Shown here: positions 13,331-60,774 of the stretch, one piece after another
How positions within the stretch are numbered: the first letter of the stretch is position 1
Layout of the letters: every line of letters begins with the position of its first letter
Assembly: GCF_003555505.1 (NCBI RefSeq)
Contig: NZ_CP032152.1
Span: 2,403,001-2,467,000 of the forward strand
Reading direction: 5' to 3'
Length of the DNA stretch: 64,000 nt
DNA from: Thermosynechococcus sichuanensis E542
GTDB lineage: Bacteria > Cyanobacteriota > Cyanobacteriia > Thermosynechococcales > Thermosynechococcaceae
Notes under the pieces: generated by a model
Database searches by the model: none
Told to the model about the DNA's origin: nothing
The model's input: the letters and a program-made list of their open reading frames with translations, nothing else
Translations under genes and position numbers: made by a program

Positions 13331-13424
13331 TGGGCTTCCTGAAAATTGCTAAGGTAACAAATTCGGTCAACACCACGAAACGGAAACGCTGGAACACTGA
13401 GCAGTTGTGAAAAACAGCCAGTCT

Positions 13425-13550
13425 CCAACTGAATGCCGACGAAGTTAGCTGACGGGCTAGGATTCAGTGGTATCCTTTCTCGGTGGAGAATGCGCCCCTG
13501 ATTCGTTGGTTCCTCCGCTCTAAGCTGCCAAGGCTCAGATTAGGCACAAG
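13425..13550 (-). ncRNA. c-di-AMP (ydaO/yuaA-class) riboswitch aptamer
   Basis: On the minus strand, reading toward the transporter at 13330, the stretch shows the conserved blocks of the ydaO/yuaA class in order: CTAATCTGAGCCTTGG, GAGCGGAGGAACCAA, GGGGCGCATT, AAAGGATACC and CCCGTCAGCTAACTTCGT, with a closing P1 stem (TGCC with GGCA). This is a close match to the pattern known from the Bacillus ydaO leader. After the aptamer a short CAGT/ACTG hairpin is followed by GCTGTTTTT (about 13411-13431), a possible but weak terminator. The known class senses cyclic di-AMP and usually switches expression off when bound. The rest of the 13331-13669 gap holds the leader and, presumably, two divergent promoters. 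Confidence 0.9.
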
Positions 13551-13669
13551 AAGATAAATTGCTACTCAACGTAGCACAGGCCTCTTGAATCCTTCAAGAG
13601 AAGTTCTTCTATGACGTAAATAGAAAATCTTAATGAGCGCTTTCCCAGACTGTTGCTCCTTGGTTAAAT

Positions 13670-50171: not shown

Positions 50172-51419
50172 ATGGGACAAGGTTGGCAAGTGGGGCGTGT
50201 CTTTGGCATTCCCCTCTATATTGATCGGTCGTGGTTTCTGGTGATTCTGCTGTTTACTTTTCTCAATGGCAGTGACTGGCAGGCCACGTACCCGCAGTGG
50301 GGAGCACTGGTATGGCTAATGGGATTTGTGGTTGCCCTGCTGTTGTTTGCCTCAGTATTGCTCCATGAATTGGGGCACAGCTTGGTGGCGCGTTCCCAAG
50401 GGATTACAGTGCGCTCAATTACCCTCTTTCTCTTTGGCGGCATGGCGGCCATTGAACGGGAATCCAATACCCCCGGTCAAGCGTTTCAAGTGGCGATCGC
50501 GGGGCCTTTGGTGAGTTTTGCCCTTTTTGCCCTGTTGCAAGGGGCAGCCGTGGTACTGCCGGCAGATCATCCCCTCCATGAACTGGTGCTCTATCTGGCC
50601 AATATCAACTTTGTCTTGGGGGTTTTTAACCTCTTGCCGGGACTTCCCCTCGATGGTGGCCAAGTGCTCAAGGCAGCCGTTTGGAAATTGACCGGCAATC
50701 GCTTTCAAGGGATGCGCTGGGCGGCGCGATCGGGACAAGTATTGGGCTGGTTGGCGATTAGTTTTGGACTGTTTGTGACCCTCCTTGGCAGTGGCAATGG
50801 GCTGTGGTTGGGTCTGCTGGGGTGGTTTGCCCTACAAAACGCCACGCTTTACAATCGCCTCAGTCAACTCCAAGAAGCATTGGTTACCCTGACGGCGGCG
50901 GATGCCATGACACGGGATTTTCGCGTGATTGAGGGAACGCTATCGCTGCGGGAGTTTGCCGATCGCTATCTCCTGCTGGCCGATCGCCAGCCCACAGCCT
51001 ACTTTGTTGCCACCGATGGCCGCTACCGGGGCTATTTGGATTCCCAAGCCCTGAACCATGTGGAGCGCAGCCGCTGGGAAGTGACGCCAGTCGAAGAGTT
51101 AGCTGTTCCCCTGCGGGCGATCGCCACCGTCAAAGAAACCGATTCCCTCGCCAAGACAGTTTGCACCCTAGAGGAGCAGCAGCAACGCTTTGTTACGGTT
51201 TTAACCCCTGCGGATGCGGTGGCTGGCGTCATTGATCGCGGCGATATTCTGCTGGCTCTGGCCAAGCAGTTGCACTGGCAACTGGGGAAACAGGATATTC
51301 AACGCCTCAAGCGAGAAAAGCATTATCCCCCTGAACTGCAGTTGTTGGAACTGGCAAAAACAGCGCTACAATTTCAGGGAAGCGATCGCGGCACATCACT
51401 CGTTTCTCAAGTTCGCTAA
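50172..51419 (+). CDS. Site-2-type (M50) intramembrane zinc metalloprotease with CBS-like C-terminus
   Basis: A 415-residue rhomboid-unrelated S2P protease. HELGH at residues 65-69 supplies zinc ligands, NLLPGLPLDGG near 156-166 the third ligand, and four to six membrane helices surround them. The C-terminal ~170 residues resemble a pair of CBS modules (TAADAMTRDFRVIEGTLSLREF and TPADAVAGVIDRGDIL), which often bind adenine nucleotides and gate activity. Such proteases cleave membrane-bound regulators; the target is unknown. The last backbone gene before the island. Confidence 0.93.
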   Translation: MGQGWQVGRVFGIPLYIDRSWFLVILLFTFLNGSDWQATYPQWGALVWLMGFVVALLLFASVLLHELGHSLVARSQGITVRSITLFLFGGMAAIERESNTPGQAFQVAIAGPLVSFALFALLQGAAVVLPADHPLHELVLYLANINFVLGVFNLLPGLPLDGGQVLKAAVWKLTGNRFQGMRWAARSGQVLGWLAISFGLFVTLLGSGNGLWLGLLGWFALQNATLYNRLSQLQEALVTLTAADAMTRDFRVIEGTLSLREFADRYLLLADRQPTAYFVATDGRYRGYLDSQALNHVERSRWEVTPVEELAVPLRAIATVKETDSLAKTVCTLEEQQQRFVTVLTPADAVAGVIDRGDILLALAKQLHWQLGKQDIQRLKREKHYPPELQLLELAKTALQFQGSDRGTSLVSQVR

Positions 51420-51522
51420 GAATTTTAACAATGGCTACTGCAACAGCGATCGCTAGAGCAATGATCCCTGCACAAAACATTACACGAAGACTTTAGAGGT
51501 AGGTTGTAGCCATTACAAGTCT

Positions 51523-54500
51523 CTAAATGTAATCTCCTGGCCTTCGTAAAGCAATTAGAGGGTTAACAGGAAGAATATTGTGATTAGGATAAATTTGTCT
51601 TATCAAATTTAAGGTTTCTTGCCATTGTGAGTGATGATTATTCCAAAGAGGATGACGAACAATCCGAATTTCTTTACGACGAGAATTTGTAGATATAAAA
51701 CTAACTAGGTTTCCATGATTATCAATACACTTATAACCCAAACTCTCAAACACGCTTTTAACGGCTCCATTGATTAGACTTGCCCAAGGGTTGCAAATTG
51801 TTCTCGAATCTGTGGAAAAACTCCAATCTGTGGACAAATCAAGCACACTATTAACGTCCATAATCAGACGTGCCATATCCAGTGCTAATCGCCAATCAAG
51901 CAAGCCGTGGTACGCAGAATTGTGGTAGTCCCTTAAACAATCGTTGCAGGAAGTATCACAGCGATCGCTATGGAATTCAGGGTTAAGCCAACGGCTAGCA
52001 ATTCTCTTAGCTTCTTTCATGACTTCCTGAAACTTTTCAGGTTGAGCTAAAAAAGTACAGTAACCTGCGCCATTTTCTAAGGCATCGCAGAGAAAAGCCT
52101 CACCCACTACTTTCCCATCTTGGCTAAACGAGCGAAATCCTGCTTGTAATTCCTGTGGATCAACATCAAGGTAAGCGCAAGCGGCTATTCTTAAAAAGAA
52201 GGCAAAGGAGTACCAAGCAGCTCTACCCTCCACTGTTGTGGGATCAGCGAAGATCCCATCTTGCCATTGCCCTACATTTACCAACAAGACATCAGTTTTA
52301 CGTCGAGCTAGAAGTGCTACTTTATAGCTCTGCCCTGAACCCGATACTGGACTGAAACTACTTTCAATACAGTCTTTTACCAGATATGCACCATTGGCAG
52401 ATTTACCAGATACACTAGCTTGCTGAAACCAAAATCCACCTTTACCTCCATTATCATTAACTGAAATAATGTGTTCACTAGTAGAGGATATATTAGCATT
52501 CAAAACTTGAACTGGACTACTTTCAATAGTATTGATACTCAAGGAAGGACGGGTTGAGTGCGGTGACCATTCAAACTGCCCATCGTAATCTTTGGGTTGT
52601 AAGTCGGTAAAAAATCCTTTTGGTTCTCTCGCATCCAAACACCTCAGAGTTCTTCGATGGCATACTGGACATTCAACTTTACCATTACAAGTGCCAACGA
52701 TTGGTTGTTGAGGCTGGTAAGGATAGACTACAGCTTGACAGTTTTGGCATAGCCCTAATGCATGATTGGAGTCTGGAAGAGGAGGGACAAAGCCATTTCT
52801 AACTTCTACTCTTCTATTTCTTGGCACCAACTCCACAACCCCACAAGCTGTGTGGACTGCCTTATCTTTGACTGTCTGTGAACCAGGAGCAAATTGACTG
52901 ATTGCTACATCTAAATTACGATCAATCGTTTGTTTATCTGACCACCTTGTATAAAGGAGGCGCACTCTGGTAGGAAAACCAAACATTGGCAAGAAGCCTG
53001 CATTTGCTAACCTCTCACTAAGAATCTGGTGAGTAAAAGTAGAATCATTGACAATCTTTGTAATTTCTGGAATAAGCTTATGCCGTAGAAGTTGCATGAA
53101 TTCTTGATAGCAATCCTTCAAATGAGTTTCTATGGAGAGACTATTCAAAATGTCATGAATTTTTTTCTCATTTTCTGAACTGTTTAGCCAATCTGAAATC
53201 CGAGATTCATAATTAGCCCAGTCTTCTACACGTCCAAACTCTCCATGAACATTATCAGTGGTTTCCAGAGATGGGCTGATACCAGTATCGGAGAATGCCT
53301 GCCTTAACACTTCTTTAATTAACACTCGCTGGAAAATTACCTTACTCCTCATATCAACATAGGGAGCTGGGGGCGGATCGCCTGTCATCCGCTCTGGGCG
53401 TTGAAAATAAAAATCATCATGGCTTCTACCCCGACAAAAAGTAACCGCTAGGGCAACACCTGCCGATCTCCTTCCTGCGCGTCCCACCCGTTGTTGATAA
53501 TTGAACCTGCGGGGTGGCATGTTTGCCATCATAACTGCCAATAATGACCCAATATCTACCCCTGCCTCCATAGTTGTTGTTACACTGAGTAAATCAATTC
53601 CCTGCACTCTGGGGATTTCATCATTGATAAAAATATCTTGAAACCATCGCTGTCGTTTAGATCGCTCCTCTTTGTCAGTTTGCCCTGTCAGTTCTGCCGC
53701 ATTCATACGGAAAGCTGATCCTGACTGTTCAGACAGATAAGTATAGTAATCAAAGTCAGAGTTAACTGCGTCAGGCTCAAGGGAAATAATAGGGTCACTG
53801 GGATCATTACCACTATTACATTCAGGACAAATGCCCCCCGCCCGATGTAGATAGAAAGCATTACACTGGAAACAACGATAACCTAATTGAGTACCATCAC
53901 TATTGAGCATCGGAGGTACTAGATAAAGCTTGTCTGGATTAAGAACAATACCTCTGTCACTGGCTATACCTGCATTAGACTTTGTAAGCTGTTCCAAAAC
54001 ATCACTTTTAGAAACATCACTGATACGGCTAATATACTTGTCAGAATAACGTGGTAAGCTTTTATTATTGCCCGGTTTGAAATAACTAGAGTACCTATGA
54101 AGTCGGCGGACACCTAATTGGCGAATGACAGCATCTACTACTTCAATTAAAGTGTTGGATGGATTATCGGCAGGTGCATAGCTAACCCAGCCCTGTCCAG
54201 TATTTTCAAGCACCCTAGCTACATGAACAAATAGAGCATACATTATTTCATCAGTTAATTTTGCCTCTAACCGATCAAGATGATTCTTTTGCTCAGCTGT
54301 AATAGCAGACACTGGAACTACTGGTATATCCCAGCTATAGCAGTCAAACCAAGGGTGCCATTCTTTTCCGCTGCCTTGTCCGACGGAGTAATTAAGTGAA
54401 CTAAAATCAGTTCCACCTGGACAAATTCCATACTCTAATAAAGAATCTCTCAGTTGACGTCTTAAATCTAGGAGAGGTACGCGATGTGGGTAGTTTTTTA

Positions 54501-57234
54501 ACATTCTTAACCACTCATTTCTAGCATTTTCATTTTGAGGTCGTTGCTTCCTCATCCATCGCTCAGCTTCTCTCACAATTTCTAAATATCTATTGCTAAA
54601 CTCATCCGCTTTCCGGATATCAAATGTTTCAGAATTGGTAGTAATATTTTTATAGAGAAGTGGATTAATCTCTTGAACTAACTTAGAGTCAAGAGTGGGA
54701 TTTTCTGCGTAGAAGTTTTTTAGATATTCTACAAAGTCAATCCAATAGTTATTGAAAGACTGAATGAGTAATAACCGCACCATATCCCGATAGTGATCCC
54801 GCTCCATCCCTGCCGCTAACTTTGCCGCATCTTGCCGACTATCGGAGAAAATAACCAATTTGCGAGGAGAACGAATACTCTGAGGGTCAGGTGCAGGCAT
54901 TTCTCGCAATAGAGCACCAGCAATCACTTGACAAGCTTTCTGAAAGCCAGTGCCGTGAGTACGTAAGGGTGTACGAAATACTTCCTTTCTGCCATAATCA
55001 GAATCACAGCGAGGACACTTACTGGGAAAGGCAGAAACTTCTGCATGATTGTCGTCCACCTCTGCATGATTGTCGTCCACCTCATAGAGCCATCCTGCTA
55101 CTTCATTTTCTTTGGGTGGGGTAGCATTTTGCTCTATTATCCCGGTTACATGATCTAGTTTTGCCTTCACCCACTTGCATGTAATCTTACCTTGACGCCA
55201 TTCGTTATCTTGGGGCTGCGTAGCCCATGGGGTTGCATCGTTAGGTAAAGGCCAAAAAATTCGATAGTTGTCATATTTCTGATTTAGAACAACTGTGTCT
55301 GGAATGCCTTCCAAATCAGGCTGATCTGGAGTAAGAATTTCCACATTTTTGTTACCTACTTTACGGGTTGCTTTATAGCCACCAAGTAGAACCTCGCCAC
55401 AGACTTCACACACTATTAAGTCTAAAACACGAGAGTTGCAAGAGCAGGTTAGAGTATGTTTAGGGTGAATTGCACCAATGTTTGGTTTATTCTTAAATTT
55501 GTCTCGCAGTTCTCTATCAATATGACGATCAGTACAGTTTGGGTTAGTACAAGCCCAGAGGCTTTGTAAGTTGTGGAAAAATAGATGCCCTCTCACCGGT
55601 TGAGGCGATCCCCCACCTACTGTAGTTGCCATTCCAAGAGCCAACAAAAATCCACGCATTGCCTCTGACACAAACTGATCAGGCCGTCTTTCATCAGGAA
55701 ATAGTTGATCATCTAAATCTCTGACATTAGTAGCACGCACACTGCCATTAACTGCACAACAAGCATCTCTTAAAGCATCTGCTGCCTTAATCTTTTCTAA
55801 AGCATCACCTAATTGTCTTCGCTCATCAGAATTACTACTAGGAAATCCCAGATTTTTTGCGAGCTTAGCCATAGCAGGTCGTGATTGATCAACATCTGGC
55901 GGCTGCATTGGATTAAATGGATCGGGCTGAATCGAACGCGCAAATTCAGCAAAGTACTTACAATAAGACCTTAGGTAATATCTCGCACCTTCTTGGGGTG
56001 GCGTCTGCTCACCACTGATAAAACTGAAGTTGTTTCTCCCAAAAAACTGACGCAGAAAATTATTACCTTCTTCACCTGCTTCTAAACTAGCAGTAGTAGT
56101 TAAAATCCTCAGTTGAGGAGAATTAGGGGTTAATCCGAGCCTTTGATATAGTAACCTTAAAATATAGGCAACCTCTGTTCCCGGTGTACCCCGATAGGCA
56201 TGAAGCTCATCAATAATTAAGAAAAATTGGTTTTCAGGGTTACTTGCTAGCCACTCTTTAGTAACATCAAATATACTCTGTTCAATACTCCGCATCATCA
56301 TGATATTAAGCATTACATAGTTAGTAATCAAAATATCAGGTGGTCTATCTTGCATATCCCAGCGCGATCGCATTTCACCGCCATCAACTCTGGGTAAGTA
56401 GAATGGCAAATCGGGCATATCAGCAAGTAGAGTAGGGTTATCGCGGAGTGCTATTTGGAGGTTGTTAAATTCTGCCTCCATATCACGCATAATCTTTCTC
56501 ATTTCTGCAATCTTGCTATTATTTCTTACGCCTGCAATTGGCGTTAAGCCAGTATAGCGACCAAAAGTAACACGATTTCCACCCCTCCTTTGATCAAGCC
56601 ACTTGTGTACAGAAGGACTATCCAGTAACTTTCGCAGTCGTCTTAGCTGATCTTCAACCAATGCATTGAGGGGATATATAATCAGAGCACGCACGGCAGC
56701 AGGACGGGTTTCATGCTTCCGTTGGGAAATCCAATCTCCACTTGGATTAACATTTTCATCCCACCATCTTTGATTAGGTGATACAGGATTAGCTGGTGAC
56801 CAATTCAGTGATTCTTTTGCTATTTGTGCCAGTAAAGGTAACAGAAAACATTCTGTTTTACCTGAGCCCGTACCCGTAGTTACAACAATATCTCTTTGAT
56901 GTGTGATTACATCCTGCAAACTTTGCCATTGGTGCTGGTATAGCTGTATATTTTGCTCAAAAAGAGTTTGTCCTAGATACTCTAAATCTTGATACTCTCG
57001 TGATAAATGACGGGTCGCTTGAGATAAATTCATCCCTGATGATTGATAAATTGGTACTGGCTCTATCAGCGGTGGAACGCTAAGAACAGGGTTATGGGGA
57101 TTATGAAGGTAATCTAAGAGTTTTTCTCTTTCTCCAACTAAAGCAGGATACCTCAGGGGAAAAGCACTTTTAATATAGAGTTGATAAACTCGATCAAGAC
57201 GCTGATAAGTACCAAGTAGATCGTGCATTACCAT
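51523..57234 (-). CDS. Giant DEAD/DEAH-box helicase with zinc clusters and DUF1998-like C-terminus
   Basis: A 1903-residue SF2 helicase. Motif I TTGTGSGKT is at 119-127, motif Ia PLNALVEDQ at 188-196, motif II DELH at 342-345, motif III-like TTTASL near 378, and motif VI QQRVGRAGRR near 1250. Cysteine pairs suggest zinc sites near 561 (CTNPNC), 740 (CPRC), 1128 (CFQC, CPEC) and 1500 (CQNC, CPVC). The C-terminal CNDCLRDYHN and HGLLDWRLALD near 1770 match the DUF1998 signature. Related architectures occur in DruE (Druantia), in split form in DISARM (DrmA/DrmB) and in MrfA repair helicases. It is the last gene of the operon, 2 bp after the 457-aa gene. A defence role is inferred. Confidence 0.85.
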   Translation of the reverse strand: MVMHDLLGTYQRLDRVYQLYIKSAFPLRYPALVGEREKLLDYLHNPHNPVLSVPPLIEPVPIYQSSGMNLSQATRHLSREYQDLEYLGQTLFEQNIQLYQHQWQSLQDVITHQRDIVVTTGTGSGKTECFLLPLLAQIAKESLNWSPANPVSPNQRWWDENVNPSGDWISQRKHETRPAAVRALIIYPLNALVEDQLRRLRKLLDSPSVHKWLDQRRGGNRVTFGRYTGLTPIAGVRNNSKIAEMRKIMRDMEAEFNNLQIALRDNPTLLADMPDLPFYLPRVDGGEMRSRWDMQDRPPDILITNYVMLNIMMMRSIEQSIFDVTKEWLASNPENQFFLIIDELHAYRGTPGTEVAYILRLLYQRLGLTPNSPQLRILTTTASLEAGEEGNNFLRQFFGRNNFSFISGEQTPPQEGARYYLRSYCKYFAEFARSIQPDPFNPMQPPDVDQSRPAMAKLAKNLGFPSSNSDERRQLGDALEKIKAADALRDACCAVNGSVRATNVRDLDDQLFPDERRPDQFVSEAMRGFLLALGMATTVGGGSPQPVRGHLFFHNLQSLWACTNPNCTDRHIDRELRDKFKNKPNIGAIHPKHTLTCSCNSRVLDLIVCEVCGEVLLGGYKATRKVGNKNVEILTPDQPDLEGIPDTVVLNQKYDNYRIFWPLPNDATPWATQPQDNEWRQGKITCKWVKAKLDHVTGIIEQNATPPKENEVAGWLYEVDDNHAEVDDNHAEVSAFPSKCPRCDSDYGRKEVFRTPLRTHGTGFQKACQVIAGALLREMPAPDPQSIRSPRKLVIFSDSRQDAAKLAAGMERDHYRDMVRLLLIQSFNNYWIDFVEYLKNFYAENPTLDSKLVQEINPLLYKNITTNSETFDIRKADEFSNRYLEIVREAERWMRKQRPQNENARNEWLRMLKNYPHRVPLLDLRRQLRDSLLEYGICPGGTDFSSLNYSVGQGSGKEWHPWFDCYSWDIPVVPVSAITAEQKNHLDRLEAKLTDEIMYALFVHVARVLENTGQGWVSYAPADNPSNTLIEVVDAVIRQLGVRRLHRYSSYFKPGNNKSLPRYSDKYISRISDVSKSDVLEQLTKSNAGIASDRGIVLNPDKLYLVPPMLNSDGTQLGYRCFQCNAFYLHRAGGICPECNSGNDPSDPIISLEPDAVNSDFDYYTYLSEQSGSAFRMNAAELTGQTDKEERSKRQRWFQDIFINDEIPRVQGIDLLSVTTTMEAGVDIGSLLAVMMANMPPRRFNYQQRVGRAGRRSAGVALAVTFCRGRSHDDFYFQRPERMTGDPPPAPYVDMRSKVIFQRVLIKEVLRQAFSDTGISPSLETTDNVHGEFGRVEDWANYESRISDWLNSSENEKKIHDILNSLSIETHLKDCYQEFMQLLRHKLIPEITKIVNDSTFTHQILSERLANAGFLPMFGFPTRVRLLYTRWSDKQTIDRNLDVAISQFAPGSQTVKDKAVHTACGVVELVPRNRRVEVRNGFVPPLPDSNHALGLCQNCQAVVYPYQPQQPIVGTCNGKVECPVCHRRTLRCLDAREPKGFFTDLQPKDYDGQFEWSPHSTRPSLSINTIESSPVQVLNANISSTSEHIISVNDNGGKGGFWFQQASVSGKSANGAYLVKDCIESSFSPVSGSGQSYKVALLARRKTDVLLVNVGQWQDGIFADPTTVEGRAAWYSFAFFLRIAACAYLDVDPQELQAGFRSFSQDGKVVGEAFLCDALENGAGYCTFLAQPEKFQEVMKEAKRIASRWLNPEFHSDRCDTSCNDCLRDYHNSAYHGLLDWRLALDMARLIMDVNSVLDLSTDWSFSTDSRTICNPWASLINGAVKSVFESLGYKCIDNHGNLVSFISTNSRRKEIRIVRHPLWNNHHSQWQETLNLIRQIYPNHNILPVNPLIALRRPGDYI
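55040..55081 (-). repeat. 21-bp tandem duplication within the helicase gene
   Basis: The 21-bp unit TCTGCATGATTGTCGTCCAC plus C occurs twice in perfect tandem (55040-55060, 55061-55081). It duplicates seven residues in frame (EVDDNHAEVDDNHAEV), immediately before the CPRC zinc pair. Perfect identity indicates a recent slippage event that keeps the gene open. Confidence 0.95.
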
Positions 57235-57236
57235 TT

Positions 57237-58610
57237 CTATTCTTCAAAAAATTCTAGTTCCAAGTTTTCTGAAAGTTCTCTAGCTATTTCTTCTGGAATA
57301 TGACTGTAAATCAAGTATCCTTTTGCATAAGTAGGCAAGCTTCCTGATTGCATAACTAAACAGGTTTCATAAACTTCCGGTAGTCTCTCACTAAAAAGAA
57401 TTGACAATGTCTTTTGAACTTTATTATAGTAAATAGCAGGTTGAATTCCCATAGACAAAATAGCTAAAAATCTCAAGCCGTACCAATCTCCTTGTAACCA
57501 TGAGTCATTACTTTCATCATAGAAAAAGCTACAGACAGGCTTTTGATCCTCTTGAGTATAGAATTGGTAGAATCCAGTCTGATTTTGAAAAGCGCAATCT
57601 ACAAACTCTCTCCCGTCAAACTGCTTAACTTTATACTTATAAGTGGGAACTCCTTGTACACGAGGTAAGCTGTTCCGCCATTCGTGAAAGCTAGGTATCT
57701 TGGGCAAATTTGAAAGAATAATAGAATATCCATAAGTTTTTAGTTTTTCTTGAAAATTTTGAGGTGTAATTTCATCTGACACAGTTAGATAAATACAGTA
57801 AGGTGATTGTCCTCTTGGTTGTAATTCTTTTCTAATTTTACCAAACTCTTGTAACTTATTTAGGAATGGATGACTACGTTGACCATGTAGTAAATAAGTG
57901 CGATCCCCAGTTCCTAAGTCACTTTGCAACAAAAGTAACGAAGGTGGCTTAACGTCCCATTTAGAGCCATTTTCAGAAATAGTTAAATGCCCTAGTAACT
58001 TCAGTCTTCTCAAAATACGCTTCGGTTCTGGTAACTCTAAAACTTCGCAAATCTTCTTAAAAGATTGCCATGTACCGTTGCCAGAAGCTGAGAGCCAATA
58101 CAGTAGATATTCATGCCTTTCGGATAATTTTCTGATTACCTTTTCATCAATGTCTTGGATGTTAGTACTCTCTGCCAAAGCTAGAGGACTTTCAGGGGTA
58201 GTTCTGGGTTGAGAGCAGTAGGGGATAGGGTTGGTATAATCATACACCTCATGAGATACACCAACCATCTGCTTAATCTCTTCAAGTATAAAAATATTCC
58301 CCTTTTTTGTGGCCGCACAATTAAACAATGGTAAGTCAAGAAATTTGGAATCAACTATTGGCCTAGGAATCTCACCTTGTACTTCGCTTTCTATTGCAAG
58401 AAAGAAGTAGTATTCGCCTCTCGGATTTTTTTCTATTCTGAGTAAAGGTATATATTGACTGAGATTATGACGGTGTACTTGATTTGTTATTACTTCAACT
58501 AGCCTTGAAGGATTGTAGCCTCTTCCTCCAGTTCTTTGCTTAAATCCCATATACCATCTTACTGTTTTTGGCCTGAGATTTTTTTGATTTATAACCATAG
58601 ATTTTGTCAT
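57237..58610 (-). CDS. Unknown protein of helicase operon (457 aa)
   Basis: Not recognised. The N-terminal ~110 residues are basic and aromatic-rich; about residues 163-232 (LLYWLSASGNGTWQSF to SKWDVKPP) look like a winged helix-turn-helix fold, which would bind DNA; the remainder is mixed alpha/beta with an acidic end LELEFFEE. No signal peptide or membrane helix. Its ATG overlaps the upstream stop (ATGA) and carries a strong AAGGAGGT Shine-Dalgarno 5-6 nt before it, so it is translated efficiently and coupled. It is followed after 2 bp by the helicase. Confidence 0.7.
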   Translation of the reverse strand: MTKSMVINQKNLRPKTVRWYMGFKQRTGGRGYNPSRLVEVITNQVHRHNLSQYIPLLRIEKNPRGEYYFFLAIESEVQGEIPRPIVDSKFLDLPLFNCAATKKGNIFILEEIKQMVGVSHEVYDYTNPIPYCSQPRTTPESPLALAESTNIQDIDEKVIRKLSERHEYLLYWLSASGNGTWQSFKKICEVLELPEPKRILRRLKLLGHLTISENGSKWDVKPPSLLLLQSDLGTGDRTYLLHGQRSHPFLNKLQEFGKIRKELQPRGQSPYCIYLTVSDEITPQNFQEKLKTYGYSIILSNLPKIPSFHEWRNSLPRVQGVPTYKYKVKQFDGREFVDCAFQNQTGFYQFYTQEDQKPVCSFFYDESNDSWLQGDWYGLRFLAILSMGIQPAIYYNKVQKTLSILFSERLPEVYETCLVMQSGSLPTYAKGYLIYSHIPEEIARELSENLELEFFEE

Positions 58611-60250
58611 GAGATTACCTCCTTACTTCTCAAATCAATACTTTCCCAGTCCACTAATTTGACTAATCTTTGTGCAGATTGACCTTGACAAGAGGCTTGA
58701 ACTAGAAAATTTCCTGAGGATGGAAACTCGATCCTAATTGCCGTGTTGCTTGGGCAAGATTGTTTAAATATGGAAGTATTACTTAAGCTGACGTTCAATT
58801 CTACTGTAGGATGAAATGCAAAAACTGTGATTTGTGGGGGATAGTCTTTAATCCACGAATTTATTTTAGGAATTTTTAGTCCCCCTGAACAACTAATAGA
58901 TAGTTTAGTGGTTGGTTGCAGTGCATTTTTCAGTTCAGGTGATTGAACAAAGACTGCATCCCATCTCTGCGAGAGAATTTGGCAATTATGAATTTCATAC
59001 CAGTTACTACCACTAAATACTTCATATTTGGTTTCGCGATCTCCTTCCCATTGGATTAAATTTTCATCTCTCAACCTTTGTAAATCACTGAATATGAAAT
59101 CCTTAAAAAGGATAATAAATGGCTCTCCTAGTTTTGGAGCGCCCCAACTAGCGTAAACTCCTGATGCTGGATTATCGGGGTCAGGTACTAAAATCCAAAA
59201 ATCTTTATTTGGTAATACTAAGTTATTAACTTGAATATTTGGGTTTACAGAATATACTCTACCTTCTGAGATTTCTTTAGCAGTTAATGGGGTACCGACT
59301 GGTAAATACCAGCCTACCCTATCTTCTTTTAAGGGATATGTTTCTCCATTTCGTATAATTTCTAATGAATTTAACAATCGCCCTTTTTGTTGTTTGGGAT
59401 GTAAATAATATTCTATGTTTCCTAAAAAGTCCTCTGTACGATAGAGCCCTGCGTATAATTGTCGCTTCCATTGCCTTCCTAGCCTGTAACCTGCTTGTTT
59501 TTTTACAGAACCATTACTCAACCATTGTTCATAGGTATTGTGAATTGCCTCAGCTACTGCCTCATATCTTTGGCGATCGTCTATGAGTTTTTTCAAATGC
59601 TTCGAAAGCTTATGATATTCATTGGCAACCTTGGTAAATAATGTTTGTTCATCCCAGTAAGCCCTCCATTGTTTTTCACTAAAAAGTTCTATTAATCTAT
59701 CTCTGTCTGCATTTCGTAATAAAGTCTGAGAAATTGGATAGTTGATATATCGGCTTGGGCCTTTTCCCTCTTCAGCAGTTGGTGTAAAGCCGCACTTCAC
59801 AAGCCACTGATTCCACCTTTTCCATAAATTGACTTCTGGAGCTTCACCTTCAGATGTGATTCTTAATCCTCTTGGCCTTGTTTGTCCATCTAGAGGTAAG
59901 CCTATAATTTCACGCAGTCTTCTAAAGTAGTTGGTTTGGTTGATCTCTTCATCATCTGCCATTTGAGTAGCGGCCAATACCATTAGTCCAAGAAATGCAA
60001 CGTACTTAGGATAGTCATTTTCAACATAACTAATACTTTCTAAATCTATACGATCGCCCATTACAACTCTATTTTTTACAGCTTCACAAAAATTCTGTGT
60101 CCAAGATTGATGACTAGGTTCTATCTCCCAAGAGTTTCCTATTAGCTCAAGAACATCATCATTTAAGCTGAGGTAAATTTTTGATCCCATTGGAGTACGG
60201 CTAATGAAGTATTCAATGATTGAATTATTCCATTCACTATATGTACTCAT
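58607..60250 (-). CDS. Unknown protein of helicase operon (547 aa)
   Basis: Not recognised. An N-terminal segment with GSKIYLSLNDDVLELIG (residues 22-38) and a helical, basic first half (to about residue 270, with KLSKHLKKLIDDRQRYEAVAEA) are followed by a beta-rich second half. The last ~80 residues (QITVFAFHPTVELNVSL to RLVKLVDW) look like an Ig-like beta sandwich. No enzymatic motif stands out. It is the first gene of the operon, about 80 bp after the predicted promoter, with no clear Shine-Dalgarno. It overlaps the 457-aa gene by 4 bp. Confidence 0.7.
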   Translation of the reverse strand: MSTYSEWNNSIIEYFISRTPMGSKIYLSLNDDVLELIGNSWEIEPSHQSWTQNFCEAVKNRVVMGDRIDLESISYVENDYPKYVAFLGLMVLAATQMADDEEINQTNYFRRLREIIGLPLDGQTRPRGLRITSEGEAPEVNLWKRWNQWLVKCGFTPTAEEGKGPSRYINYPISQTLLRNADRDRLIELFSEKQWRAYWDEQTLFTKVANEYHKLSKHLKKLIDDRQRYEAVAEAIHNTYEQWLSNGSVKKQAGYRLGRQWKRQLYAGLYRTEDFLGNIEYYLHPKQQKGRLLNSLEIIRNGETYPLKEDRVGWYLPVGTPLTAKEISEGRVYSVNPNIQVNNLVLPNKDFWILVPDPDNPASGVYASWGAPKLGEPFIILFKDFIFSDLQRLRDENLIQWEGDRETKYEVFSGSNWYEIHNCQILSQRWDAVFVQSPELKNALQPTTKLSISCSGGLKIPKINSWIKDYPPQITVFAFHPTVELNVSLSNTSIFKQSCPSNTAIRIEFPSSGNFLVQASCQGQSAQRLVKLVDWESIDLRSKEVIS

Positions 60251-60331
60251 TGCTAAATTAGATTAAGATTTTCTAAATAAAGTTAAGAAGTACCGGGCTT
60301 TTCCTCAAGAAAGGTATGCAGATATATAGGT

Positions 60332-60360
60332 AGTATGACGTCTTTTATAAATTTTGTCAA
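60332..60360 (-). promoter_or_regulatory. Sigma-70-type promoter of the helicase operon
   Basis: On the minus strand TTGACA (60355-60360, a perfect -35) is followed by exactly 17 bp and CATACT (60332-60337, four of six matches to TATAAT). It lies 82-110 bp upstream of the first gene's ATG at 60250, leaving a 5' leader of about 75 nt. Confidence 0.65.
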
Positions 60361-60361
60361 G

Positions 60362-60420
60362 GTACAACAGCCTTTTTTCCACAATATGGAACATGTAAGG
60401 GGTATGTAAAGCTGTTGTAC
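60362..60420. repeat. 10-bp inverted repeat directly upstream of the island promoter
   Basis: GTACAACAGC (60362-60371) and GCTGTTGTAC (60411-60420) are perfect inverted arms 39 bp apart; the near arm abuts the -35 hexamer. A smaller palindrome TTCCA-N5-TGGAA lies inside (60377-60391). Position and symmetry suggest an operator for a dimeric regulator or a looped RNA; which one is inference. The interior also resembles the psbE/STAS promoter core. Confidence 0.7.
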
Positions 60421-60487
60421 AGCAGTTCGAGGTGTTTTGAGCATGTCTAATTCTGTATTCCTGACTAGAACCTGAGGATGTGCCAGT

Positions 60488-60517
60488 ACTTTTTACCGCT
60501 GCACTTTTTACCGCTGC
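60488..60517. repeat. 15-bp tandem repeat in the island's right flank
   Basis: ACTTTTTACCGCTGC occurs twice in direct succession (60488-60502, 60503-60517) in the non-coding flank between the operon promoter and tRNA-Trp. No gene is seen in 60421-60693; a short frame around 60591-60690 reads like a decayed coding piece but has no recognisable match. Confidence 0.9.
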
Positions 60518-60693
60518 TACGTGATCTTTTTGTCAGTAGCGCCTAAATCATACATGGATGACTTGATATACTCTCCTACCTAAAACTGCGGAATTCTTGT
60601 TACTGGTTCAGCAATCCCACTTATGACTTCAGGTTTAGCCACTACCGCAGAGGCAATTGCCTCCCCAGTCATTTGTAGCATTGATTTAGATAA

Positions 60694-60766
60694 CGCGCCC
60701 TGGAGGACTCGAACCCCCGACATCCGGTTTTGGAGACCGACGTTCTACCAACTGAACTAAGGACGC
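60694..60766 (-). tRNA. trnW: tRNA-Trp (CCA)
   Basis: A 73-nt cloverleaf: acceptor GCGTCCT pairs with AGGGCGC, the D-arm is GTTCAGTTGGTAGAAC, the anticodon loop CTCCAAA gives CCA, and the T-arm is GGGGGTTCGAGTCCTCC. It follows rplS by 8 bp on the same strand. Its 3' end faces the island. Confidence 0.95.
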
Positions 60767-60774
60767 AAGGCTAT

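What the first reader, a model, noticed from the sequence alone, without database searches (positions are those of the whole stretch)
51523..60250. Three-gene operon with a giant DUF1998-type helicase and two unrecognised partners: candidate defence system
A 1903-aa DEAD/DEAH helicase with several zinc clusters and a DUF1998-like end is translated together with two unknown proteins (547 and 457 aa; ATGA overlap and 2-bp gap). Seen: motifs, spacing, AT-rich composition. Known: helicase plus DUF1998 architectures are cores of Druantia (DruE) and DISARM (DrmA/DrmB). Inference: this is a defence-type module. It lacks a methyltransferase, a phospholipase-D protein (DrmC) and a DruH-size partner, so it fits none of those types cleanly.
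Basis: partly seen in the sequence, partly recalled or inferred. Interest (0 to 1): 0.85.

Follow-up and report, generated by a model that had tools for sequence, protein, structure and literature searches.

The report
Divergent Druantia type IV defence operon
A cyanobacterium carries a three-gene anti-phage operon that belongs to a little-studied, already named defence family (Druantia type IV), in a divergent form whose two helper proteins have a different domain layout from the usual one.

Summary
In detail: three same-strand genes at 51523-60250 (547, 457, 1903 aa), with an ATGA overlap and a 2-bp gap, in an AT-rich island. It is a defence-type operon, but not an unnamed one: PADLOC models identify DruE (DruE4, 1632 bits), DruL (DruL4, 3.8e-12) and DruF (DruF2 3.6e-25, DruF4 7.5e-21), which is Druantia type IV (PMC8565338).

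It is a divergent branch of that type. DruF is shorter (526-576 aa) and DruL carries a ~160-aa N-terminal module not found in the shorter DruL proteins. Profiles show that DruL is the detached C-terminal third of ~1000-aa DruF, and one relative encodes DruF-DruL as a single protein. The F/L junction holds unrelated-looking modules in different lineages. I saw no nuclease signature.

The trio is mobile: five of ten other same-genus genomes have an empty or near-empty site, and relatives lie on plasmids. I infer that DruF-DruL senses or loads and that DruE translocates on phage DNA. I found no experiment on type IV.

The parts
58607..60250 (-). druF: 547-aa DruF of the short form; first gene of the operon
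   Evidence: PADLOC DruF2 3.6e-25 and DruF4 7.5e-21 on the N-terminal half; profile alignment to longer DruF over columns 6-531, E 4.1e-33; AlphaFold model of low confidence (pLDDT 56): helical N-terminal half, then beta-rich, beta-sandwich at the C-terminus
57237..58610 (-). druL: 457-aa DruL of the long form; second gene, ATGA overlap with druF
   Evidence: PADLOC DruL4 3.8e-12 over residues 166-450, model positions 3-301 of 309; homologous to the C-terminal third of ~1000-aa DruF
58122..58610 (-). N-terminal module of DruL (about residues 1-163), absent from the shorter DruL proteins; ferredoxin-like (beta-alpha-beta-beta-alpha-beta) in a low-confidence model
   Evidence: no similarity to the DruF tails or F/L linkers of other lineages; model residues 15-105 align to ferredoxin-like chains, Z 6-7.7, a range that the tool calls common
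57948..58145 (-). winged-helix-like segment of DruL (about residues 156-221)
   Evidence: helix 156-176, strand 178-180, helices 181-190 and 196-205, strands 209-211 and 217-220 in the model, pLDDT about 77-90 for residues 161-220; reading it as a winged helix is mine
51523..57234 (-). druE: 1903-aa YprA/MrfA-like SF2 helicase with several Cys clusters and a C-terminal tail without evident nuclease residues
   Evidence: PADLOC DruE4 1631.6 bits over residues 3-1876; Pfam DEAD and Helicase_C; solved relatives 9wae_A and 9tu7_Y
51526..51867 (-). C-terminal tail of DruE (residues 1790-1903), where related helicases carry a Vsr-like domain; no invariant acidic residue, W1817, H1861 and P1862 invariant
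   Evidence: alignment of 20 DruE proteins; inactive Vsr in types I and II as described in PMC12458937 (passages); that this tail is such a domain is inference
51420..60692 (.). AT-rich insertion between an M50 protease gene (stop at 51419) and tRNA-Trp (60693-60767); boundaries approximate
   Evidence: composition; five of ten other same-genus genomes have 60-95 bp between the two flank matches (alignment of the ends)

Best explanation
This is a horizontally acquired Druantia type IV anti-phage operon (druF-druL-druE) of a divergent branch. Shown here: the family identity of all three proteins, their conserved order, their patchy and plasmid-borne distribution, and the homology of DruF plus DruL to the two ends of ~1000-aa DruF. 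Inferred: DruF and DruL form one sensor/loader unit (they are one polypeptide in some genomes). A winged helix in DruL and the beta-sandwich end of DruF contact DNA or a phage product. This unit gates DruE, a zinc-rich ATP-driven translocase of the YprA/MrfA type, which engages phage replication intermediates and blocks or dismantles their replication. Because I recognised no nuclease active site in any of the three proteins, I expect remodelling of DNA or hand-over to host nucleases rather than cutting by the system itself.
For: PADLOC matches of all three proteins. Trio in the same order in G005, G062, G044 and G032, on plasmids of Calothrix, Oscillatoria and Deinococcus and in a Poribacteria MAG. 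A DruL-like gene in 16 of 386 genomes of the phylum, each with a DruE-type helicase, whole or in pieces, beside it: 13 with F, L and E intact (three of these with an extra gene, one with F and L fused), two broken, one without F and with a helicase of another subtype. Natural F-L fusion matching DruF4 (5.1e-162) and DruL4 (1.3e-85) in one protein. Neighbours in some relatives are defence genes: pAgo (L061), DndB (L096), type III CRISPR RAMP and Cas_APE2256 (L099), NERD-UvrD (L104), an annotated cytosine methyltransferase (L106). Foreign composition and empty sites in the genus. Conserved ATPase residues in 20 of 20 aligned DruE. For type III, published work assigns DruH as likely sensor and DruE as helicase-nuclease effector on ssDNA-containing intermediates (PMC13192584: abstract, passages and section 13).
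Against: No type IV system was among those tested in the paper that named it (passages of PMC8565338: Zorya III, Hachiman II and Lamassu II). The DruF4 models match only the first ~250 residues here. DruF and DruL show no sequence similarity to DruH, so the sensor role is by analogy only. Both structure models come from 3-4 sequences and the DruF model is poor. Housekeeping genes, not defence genes, flank the operon in this window and in several relatives. Absence of a nuclease is judged by eye from sequence only; DruE of type III does have one.
Confidence: 0.72

Rival explanations
1. A DISARM- or ARMADA-type system: a YprA-like helicase working with a methyltransferase and other partners.
For: DruE shares the YprA family with DrmA and ARMADA helicases (PMC12458937, section 5); weak DrmA match (8.8e-09, 31.7 bits).
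Against: DruE4 scores 1632 bits. No methyltransferase, BrxHII helicase or separate DUF1998 protein beside it: the flanking genes scanned are M50 protease, L19, Maf, AMP-binding and CbiG, with tRNA-Trp between. The partners match DruF and DruL.
Confidence: 0.03
2. A DNA-repair operon of the YprA/MrfA kind, fixed in the host for housekeeping.
For: A solved relative of the helicase core is YprA/MrfA (6znp, 2.6e-12), a repair helicase (PMC12458937, section 5).
Against: Full-length helicase in 1 of 10 other same-genus genomes, an empty or near-empty site in five of ten, foreign composition and plasmid carriage. The helicase of G005 is only 70% identical while the two flanks are 91-92% identical between this genome and G005.
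Confidence: 0.07
3. A selfish or decaying insertion without present function.
For: Broken copies exist: G201 has DruE and DruF in pieces, G057 has in-frame stops and a contig break, G007 keeps only an 84-residue DruE match. A 21-nt tandem duplication lies in this DruE.
Against: All three frames are open here, ATPase and Cys residues are kept, and spacing is tight with a strong Shine-Dalgarno before druL.
Confidence: 0.08
4. An abortive-infection device in which DruF or DruL is a toxin held in check until infection.
For: For type III in M. smegmatis, DruH alone is toxic and infection leads to a non-canonical abortive outcome (passages of PMC13316683).
Against: No toxin or nuclease family matched DruF or DruL above cut-off in Pfam or NCBIfam, and PADLOC gave only DruF and DruL; DruF and DruL are not related to DruH by profile comparison.
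Confidence: 0.1

Closest known systems
Druantia type IV (PADLOC 2021; DruE, DruF, DruL)
   Same: All three proteins match its models; same three components, no DruM or DruG; gene order F-L-E also in the Nostoc C052 and TIOX110 plasmids, which I call usual type IV by their protein lengths without a PADLOC scan of their own
   Different: DruF 526-576 aa instead of 607-685; DruL 441-494 aa instead of 289-358 (longest-ORF lengths, some starts trimmed), with an extra N-terminal module; DruE falls in a branch of 12 of 23 sequences (support 100; 98 in an earlier tree), whose deepest member L099 has the short DruL
Druantia type II (DruM, DruF, DruG, DruE)
   Same: DruE2 models score almost as high as DruE4 (1561 against 1632 bits); ~1000-aa DruF of loci with a type II-like helicase contains both F and L regions
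   Different: F and L are separate genes here; no DruM methyltransferase or DruG seen in the operon
Druantia type III (DruH, DruE)
   Same: DruE-family helicase with a non-helicase partner module; likely sensor-plus-helicase logic
   Different: No DruH (no profile similarity); no PLD domain in the Pfam scan of DruE
MrfA/YprA repair helicase
   Same: Helicase core and MrfA-type Zn-binding end (the latter below Pfam's cut-off)
   Different: 751 aa against 1903 here; operon partners; patchy distribution

Membership tests
Druantia type IV | DruE present | tested here: met
   DruE4 best model, 1631.6 bits, residues 3-1876 of 1903
Druantia type IV | DruF present | tested here: met
   DruF2 3.6e-25 and DruF4 7.5e-21, but only over the N-terminal ~250 residues, about 37% of the DruF4 model; profile-profile alignment to longer DruF spans columns 6-531, E 4.1e-33. 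PADLOC's own coverage cut-offs were not available, so whether PADLOC itself would call the full system is not known
Druantia type IV | DruL present | tested here: met
   DruL4 3.8e-12, model positions 3-301 of 309
Druantia type IV | No DruM and no DruG in the operon | tested here: met
   The trio are the only non-overlapping ORFs of 100 aa or more between the M50 protease gene and tRNA-Trp; flanking genes are housekeeping
Druantia type IV | Protects against phage | not testable with these tools
   No experiment on type IV found in the searches made
Druantia type II | DruM and DruG accompany DruF and DruE | tested here: not met
   No further gene in the operon, and none such among the flanking genes scanned with Pfam
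Druantia type III | DruH partner | tested here: not met
   No DruH model matched the three proteins; no profile similarity of F or L to five DruH proteins, no better than reversed controls
DISARM | DrmA helicase with separate DrmB (DUF1998) and usually a methyltransferase (the latter recalled) | tested here: not met
   Helicase is DruE, with the Zn-binding end in the same protein; no methyltransferase beside it
[quoted passage not shown]
   Partners are DruF and DruL; feature list from PMC12458937 section 5

The most novel reading that the evidence does not exclude
Druantia II and IV share one sensor protein, DruF-DruL, which is fused in some lineages and split in others, and whose F/L junction is an exchangeable slot. 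In the branch of this window the slot holds a ferredoxin-like module on DruL, in type II-like and other type IV-like loci unrelated-looking modules on DruF, and in relatives from outside the class a further tail plus a whole inserted gene. The slot would set what the system recognises, and the system would act without any nuclease of its own.
Probability: 0.3. Interest if true: 0.55.

Novelty: new variant of a known kind. Interest (0 to 1): 0.4.

Why it matters
Druantia type IV is named, but I found no experiment or mechanism for it, and PADLOC lists DruF and DruL as 'unknown function'. Showing that DruL is the detached end of long DruF turns two unknown proteins into one unit and points to the F/L junction as the variable part to test. 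The divergent branch may also be missed or mistyped by tools, because the PADLOC DruF models match only the N-terminal half of its DruF.

Tried and rejected
DruF plus DruL as a split relative of the type III sensor DruH (prompted by Ig-like domains described in DruH): profile comparison with DruH from E. coli ATCC 8739 and four plasmid DruH proteins gave nothing above reversed controls. Not supported.

A shared origin of the DruL N-terminal module and the DruF tails or linkers of other lineages: no similarity found. Distant homology is not excluded.

Viral contigs: two scans with DruL and DruF found no relative. Searches of solved structures with DruF and DruL profiles gave no convincing match (DruF best E 0.052, DruL none up to E 1). 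Foldseek with both models: nothing at E <= 0.001. VIA-align rows for DruF stayed at Z <= 5.7, nearly all on the last ~90 residues, a generic beta-sandwich. The C-terminal part of DruL was barely tested because the N-terminal module filled the list.

DruH3 model PDLC00042 in 146 genomes: nothing, and no control genome rang, so it says nothing. Branching of type II against type IV DruE is unresolved: the two trees differ, p-AU 0.509. Both are quick trees (the careful search did not finish), with long branches flagged for L114 and for L106 and L099; L114-L116 were left out of the second. Helicases in pieces (L063, L097, L098) were not put in the trees. Promoter and terminator scans of the region were no richer than shuffles. 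CoCoNuT paper PMC11090510 (passages) had nothing on DruF.

The query 'DruG' matched the word 'drug' and was useless.
Full report
OBSERVATION. The first pair overlaps by ATGA, with AAGGAGG shortly before the second start; the second pair is 2 bp apart. GC falls to 0.36-0.43 against about 0.50-0.58 in the flanks. The helicase carries Walker A and DELH motifs and several Cys clusters that are kept in 20 of 20 aligned DruE proteins (six more distant helicases left out). Homologues begin at its third codon, so the real start may be 6 nt further on.

IDENTITY. PADLOC models name all three: DruE4 at 1631.6 bits over nearly the whole helicase (DruE2 1561, DruE1 733, DruE3 392); DruL4 at 3.8e-12 over almost the full model for the 457-aa protein; DruF2 at 3.6e-25 and DruF4 at 7.5e-21 for the N-terminal half of the 547-aa protein. 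Pfam and NCBIfam name nothing in the two partners above their cut-offs. DruE+DruF+DruL without DruM and DruG is the definition of Druantia type IV in PMC8565338 (passages read), where 168 instances were counted and DruL was called a hypothetical protein. Its tests covered Zorya III, Hachiman II and Lamassu II (passages). In the held library the phrases 'Druantia type IV', 'type IV Druantia' and 'Druantia IV' occur in that paper alone, and 'DruL' with 'Druantia' in three papers, two of them known to me only from the search listing.

DISTRIBUTION. The helicase was sought in 97 genomes, own included. Full-length copies stand in the window's genome and four others (G005 of the same genus, G062, G044, G032; 57-70% identity), with pieces in G093 and G057 and an 84-residue match in G007. 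The remaining matches (31 of 97 genomes in all at E <= 0.001) are far weaker, at most 120.7 bits. The four full copies are each preceded by DruF and DruL in the same order. A DruL-like gene was sought in 386 genomes of the phylum and found in 16. Of these 16, 13 have intact F, L and E together: nine as plain F-L-E (G000, G005, G062, G044, G032, G175, G207, G270, G103), three with an extra 583-626-aa gene between F and L (G246, G174, G155), and one with F and L fused (G332). Two are broken or split over contigs (G201, G057). One, G143, has DruL beside a split helicase of another DruE subtype and no F match. In the plasmid collection DruL was found in 3 records and DruF in 8. The three with DruL (Calothrix, Oscillatoria, Deinococcus aquaticus) carry the trio. 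Of the other five DruF records, two (Nostoc C052, TIOX110) have F, a short L and E; two (Alisedimentitalea, Shinella) have a ~1000-aa DruF beside DruE; and one (Deinococcus gobiensis) has a 178-aa DruF piece with no DruE in the 18.5 kb fetched, where a helicase-related neighbour scores only 11 bits. A Poribacteria MAG also carries the trio (L077). G175 contig C4 has the length (55,337) of Calothrix PCC 6303 plasmid NC_019752.1, with DruL at the same place, so that system is counted once as a genome and once as a plasmid.

MOBILITY. The operon sits between an M50 protease gene and tRNA-Trp, with L19 and Maf genes beyond. Of ten other genomes of the genus, five (G002, G004, G006, G007, G009) have only 60-95 bp between the two flank matches. 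Two (G001, G005) have about 710-730 bp, which in G001 holds a 227-aa ORF with a sub-threshold match to the N-terminus of type I restriction R proteins. In G008 the flanks are on different contigs, and in G003 and G010 they are not adjacent. G005 carries its own copy of the trio at another place, next to a fumarase-family lyase gene. No integrase-sized extra gene lies in the island, and the repeat search showed no clear flanking direct repeat. In relatives, neighbours include a prokaryotic Argonaute (L061), DndB (L096), type III CRISPR and Schlafen genes (L099), a NERD-UvrD protein (L104) and an annotated cytosine methyltransferase (L106), but also plainly housekeeping genes (L059, L060, L062, L095). 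Only selected neighbours (20 proteins with Pfam) were scanned.

WHAT THE PARTNERS ARE. Profiles made from the window-like proteins show that ~1000-aa DruF proteins contain both partners end to end. DruF of this branch aligns with columns 34-525, and DruL (from column ~165 on) with columns 737-1024, of the profile of three long proteins (E 9.5e-27 and 5.1e-18; short DruL 1e-24). This holds for each long protein singly (6.3e-9 to 2.6e-17), and reversed DruL profiles give nothing. One cyanobacterial protein of 1040 aa (L102) matches PADLOC DruF4 (residues 37-697) and DruL4 (residues 728-1039) together, and the 1011-position DruF2 model of PADLOC matches a DruL-like protein at its end (945-1001, E 0.0013). 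The other two long proteins (L105, L110) I call type II-like; the L110 helicase scores best with DruE2, while the L105 helicase and both of these DruF proteins were not scanned with PADLOC. DruL is thus best seen as the detached C-terminal third of long DruF. I did not see this in the papers read.

THE JUNCTION. In this branch DruF is 526-576 aa (14 proteins) and DruL 441-494 aa (12 proteins), with about 160 extra N-terminal residues. L099, at the base of the branch, has the short DruF and a short 308-aa DruL. The five other split DruF are 607-685 aa, and the short DruL 289-358 aa (six proteins, L099 among them). These are longest-ORF lengths, some trimmed by alignment; annotated starts give 413 aa for the Deinococcus aquaticus DruL and 286 aa for the TIOX110 DruL. 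Fifteen pieces from the junction fall into groups with no detectable similarity between groups: the five DruL N-termini of this branch; L102 with L108; L105 with L110; L101 with L103; L106 and L100 match none of the others; the ends of the two short DruF match each other weakly. DruE trees put the 12 branch members together (support 98 and 100), while the order of type II and other type IV-like helicases is unresolved (quick trees only).

STRUCTURE. DruF was modelled at 56 and is useful only for its broad outline. The last 114 residues of DruE, where related helicases have a Vsr-type nuclease (inactive in types I and II; PMC12458937, passages), show no invariant acidic residue. By eye, conserved polar residues of F and L do not form a nuclease signature that I know.

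MECHANISM. Shown: family identity, operon structure, patchy distribution, unity of F and L. Taken from the literature on type III: DruH likely senses phage proteins and DruE works on ssDNA-containing intermediates (PMC13192584, abstract, passages and section 13; PMC13316683, passages). Inferred: F-L does the sensing or loading, DruE translocates, and no nuclease is built in. The analogy with DruH is of role only, since no similarity was found.

VERDICT. A real, mobile, probably functional operon of a named but, as far as I could find, uncharacterised defence type, in a divergent form. The claim of an unnamed system falls; the claim of a defence module stands.

Noticed in passing
window 55037-55078: 21-nt tandem duplication in frame inside druE, giving a repeated VDDNHAE; not seen in the four relatives aligned.
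   Followed up: partly
window 60488-60517: Exact 15-nt tandem duplication in the leader upstream of druF.
   Followed up: no
window 13419-13556: c-di-AMP riboswitch (ydaO/yuaA leader), 70 bits, on the minus strand.
   Followed up: no
L098:3617-10494: DruL-like gene (361 aa) behind a DruE-type helicase of another subtype split in two frames, with no DruF match.
   Followed up: partly
L100:10084-11964, L101:10051-11802, L103:6279-8036: Extra gene of 583-626 aa exactly between DruF and DruL in three relatives of the same phylum but outside the class; weak matches to JetC for the two that were scanned.
   Followed up: partly
L061:2148-4379: Prokaryotic Argonaute (PADLOC pAgo, 1039 bits) directly upstream of a DruF-DruL-DruE trio, same strand.
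   Followed up: no
L107:9001-9537: Stand-alone 178-aa DruF N-terminal piece on a Deinococcus gobiensis plasmid, near a helicase-related protein and a DUF1998 protein.
   Followed up: no
L071:543-1226: The same M50/tRNA-Trp spot holds a 227-aa ORF with a weak type I restriction R N-terminus match in G001; the spot may be a small defence hotspot.
   Followed up: partly
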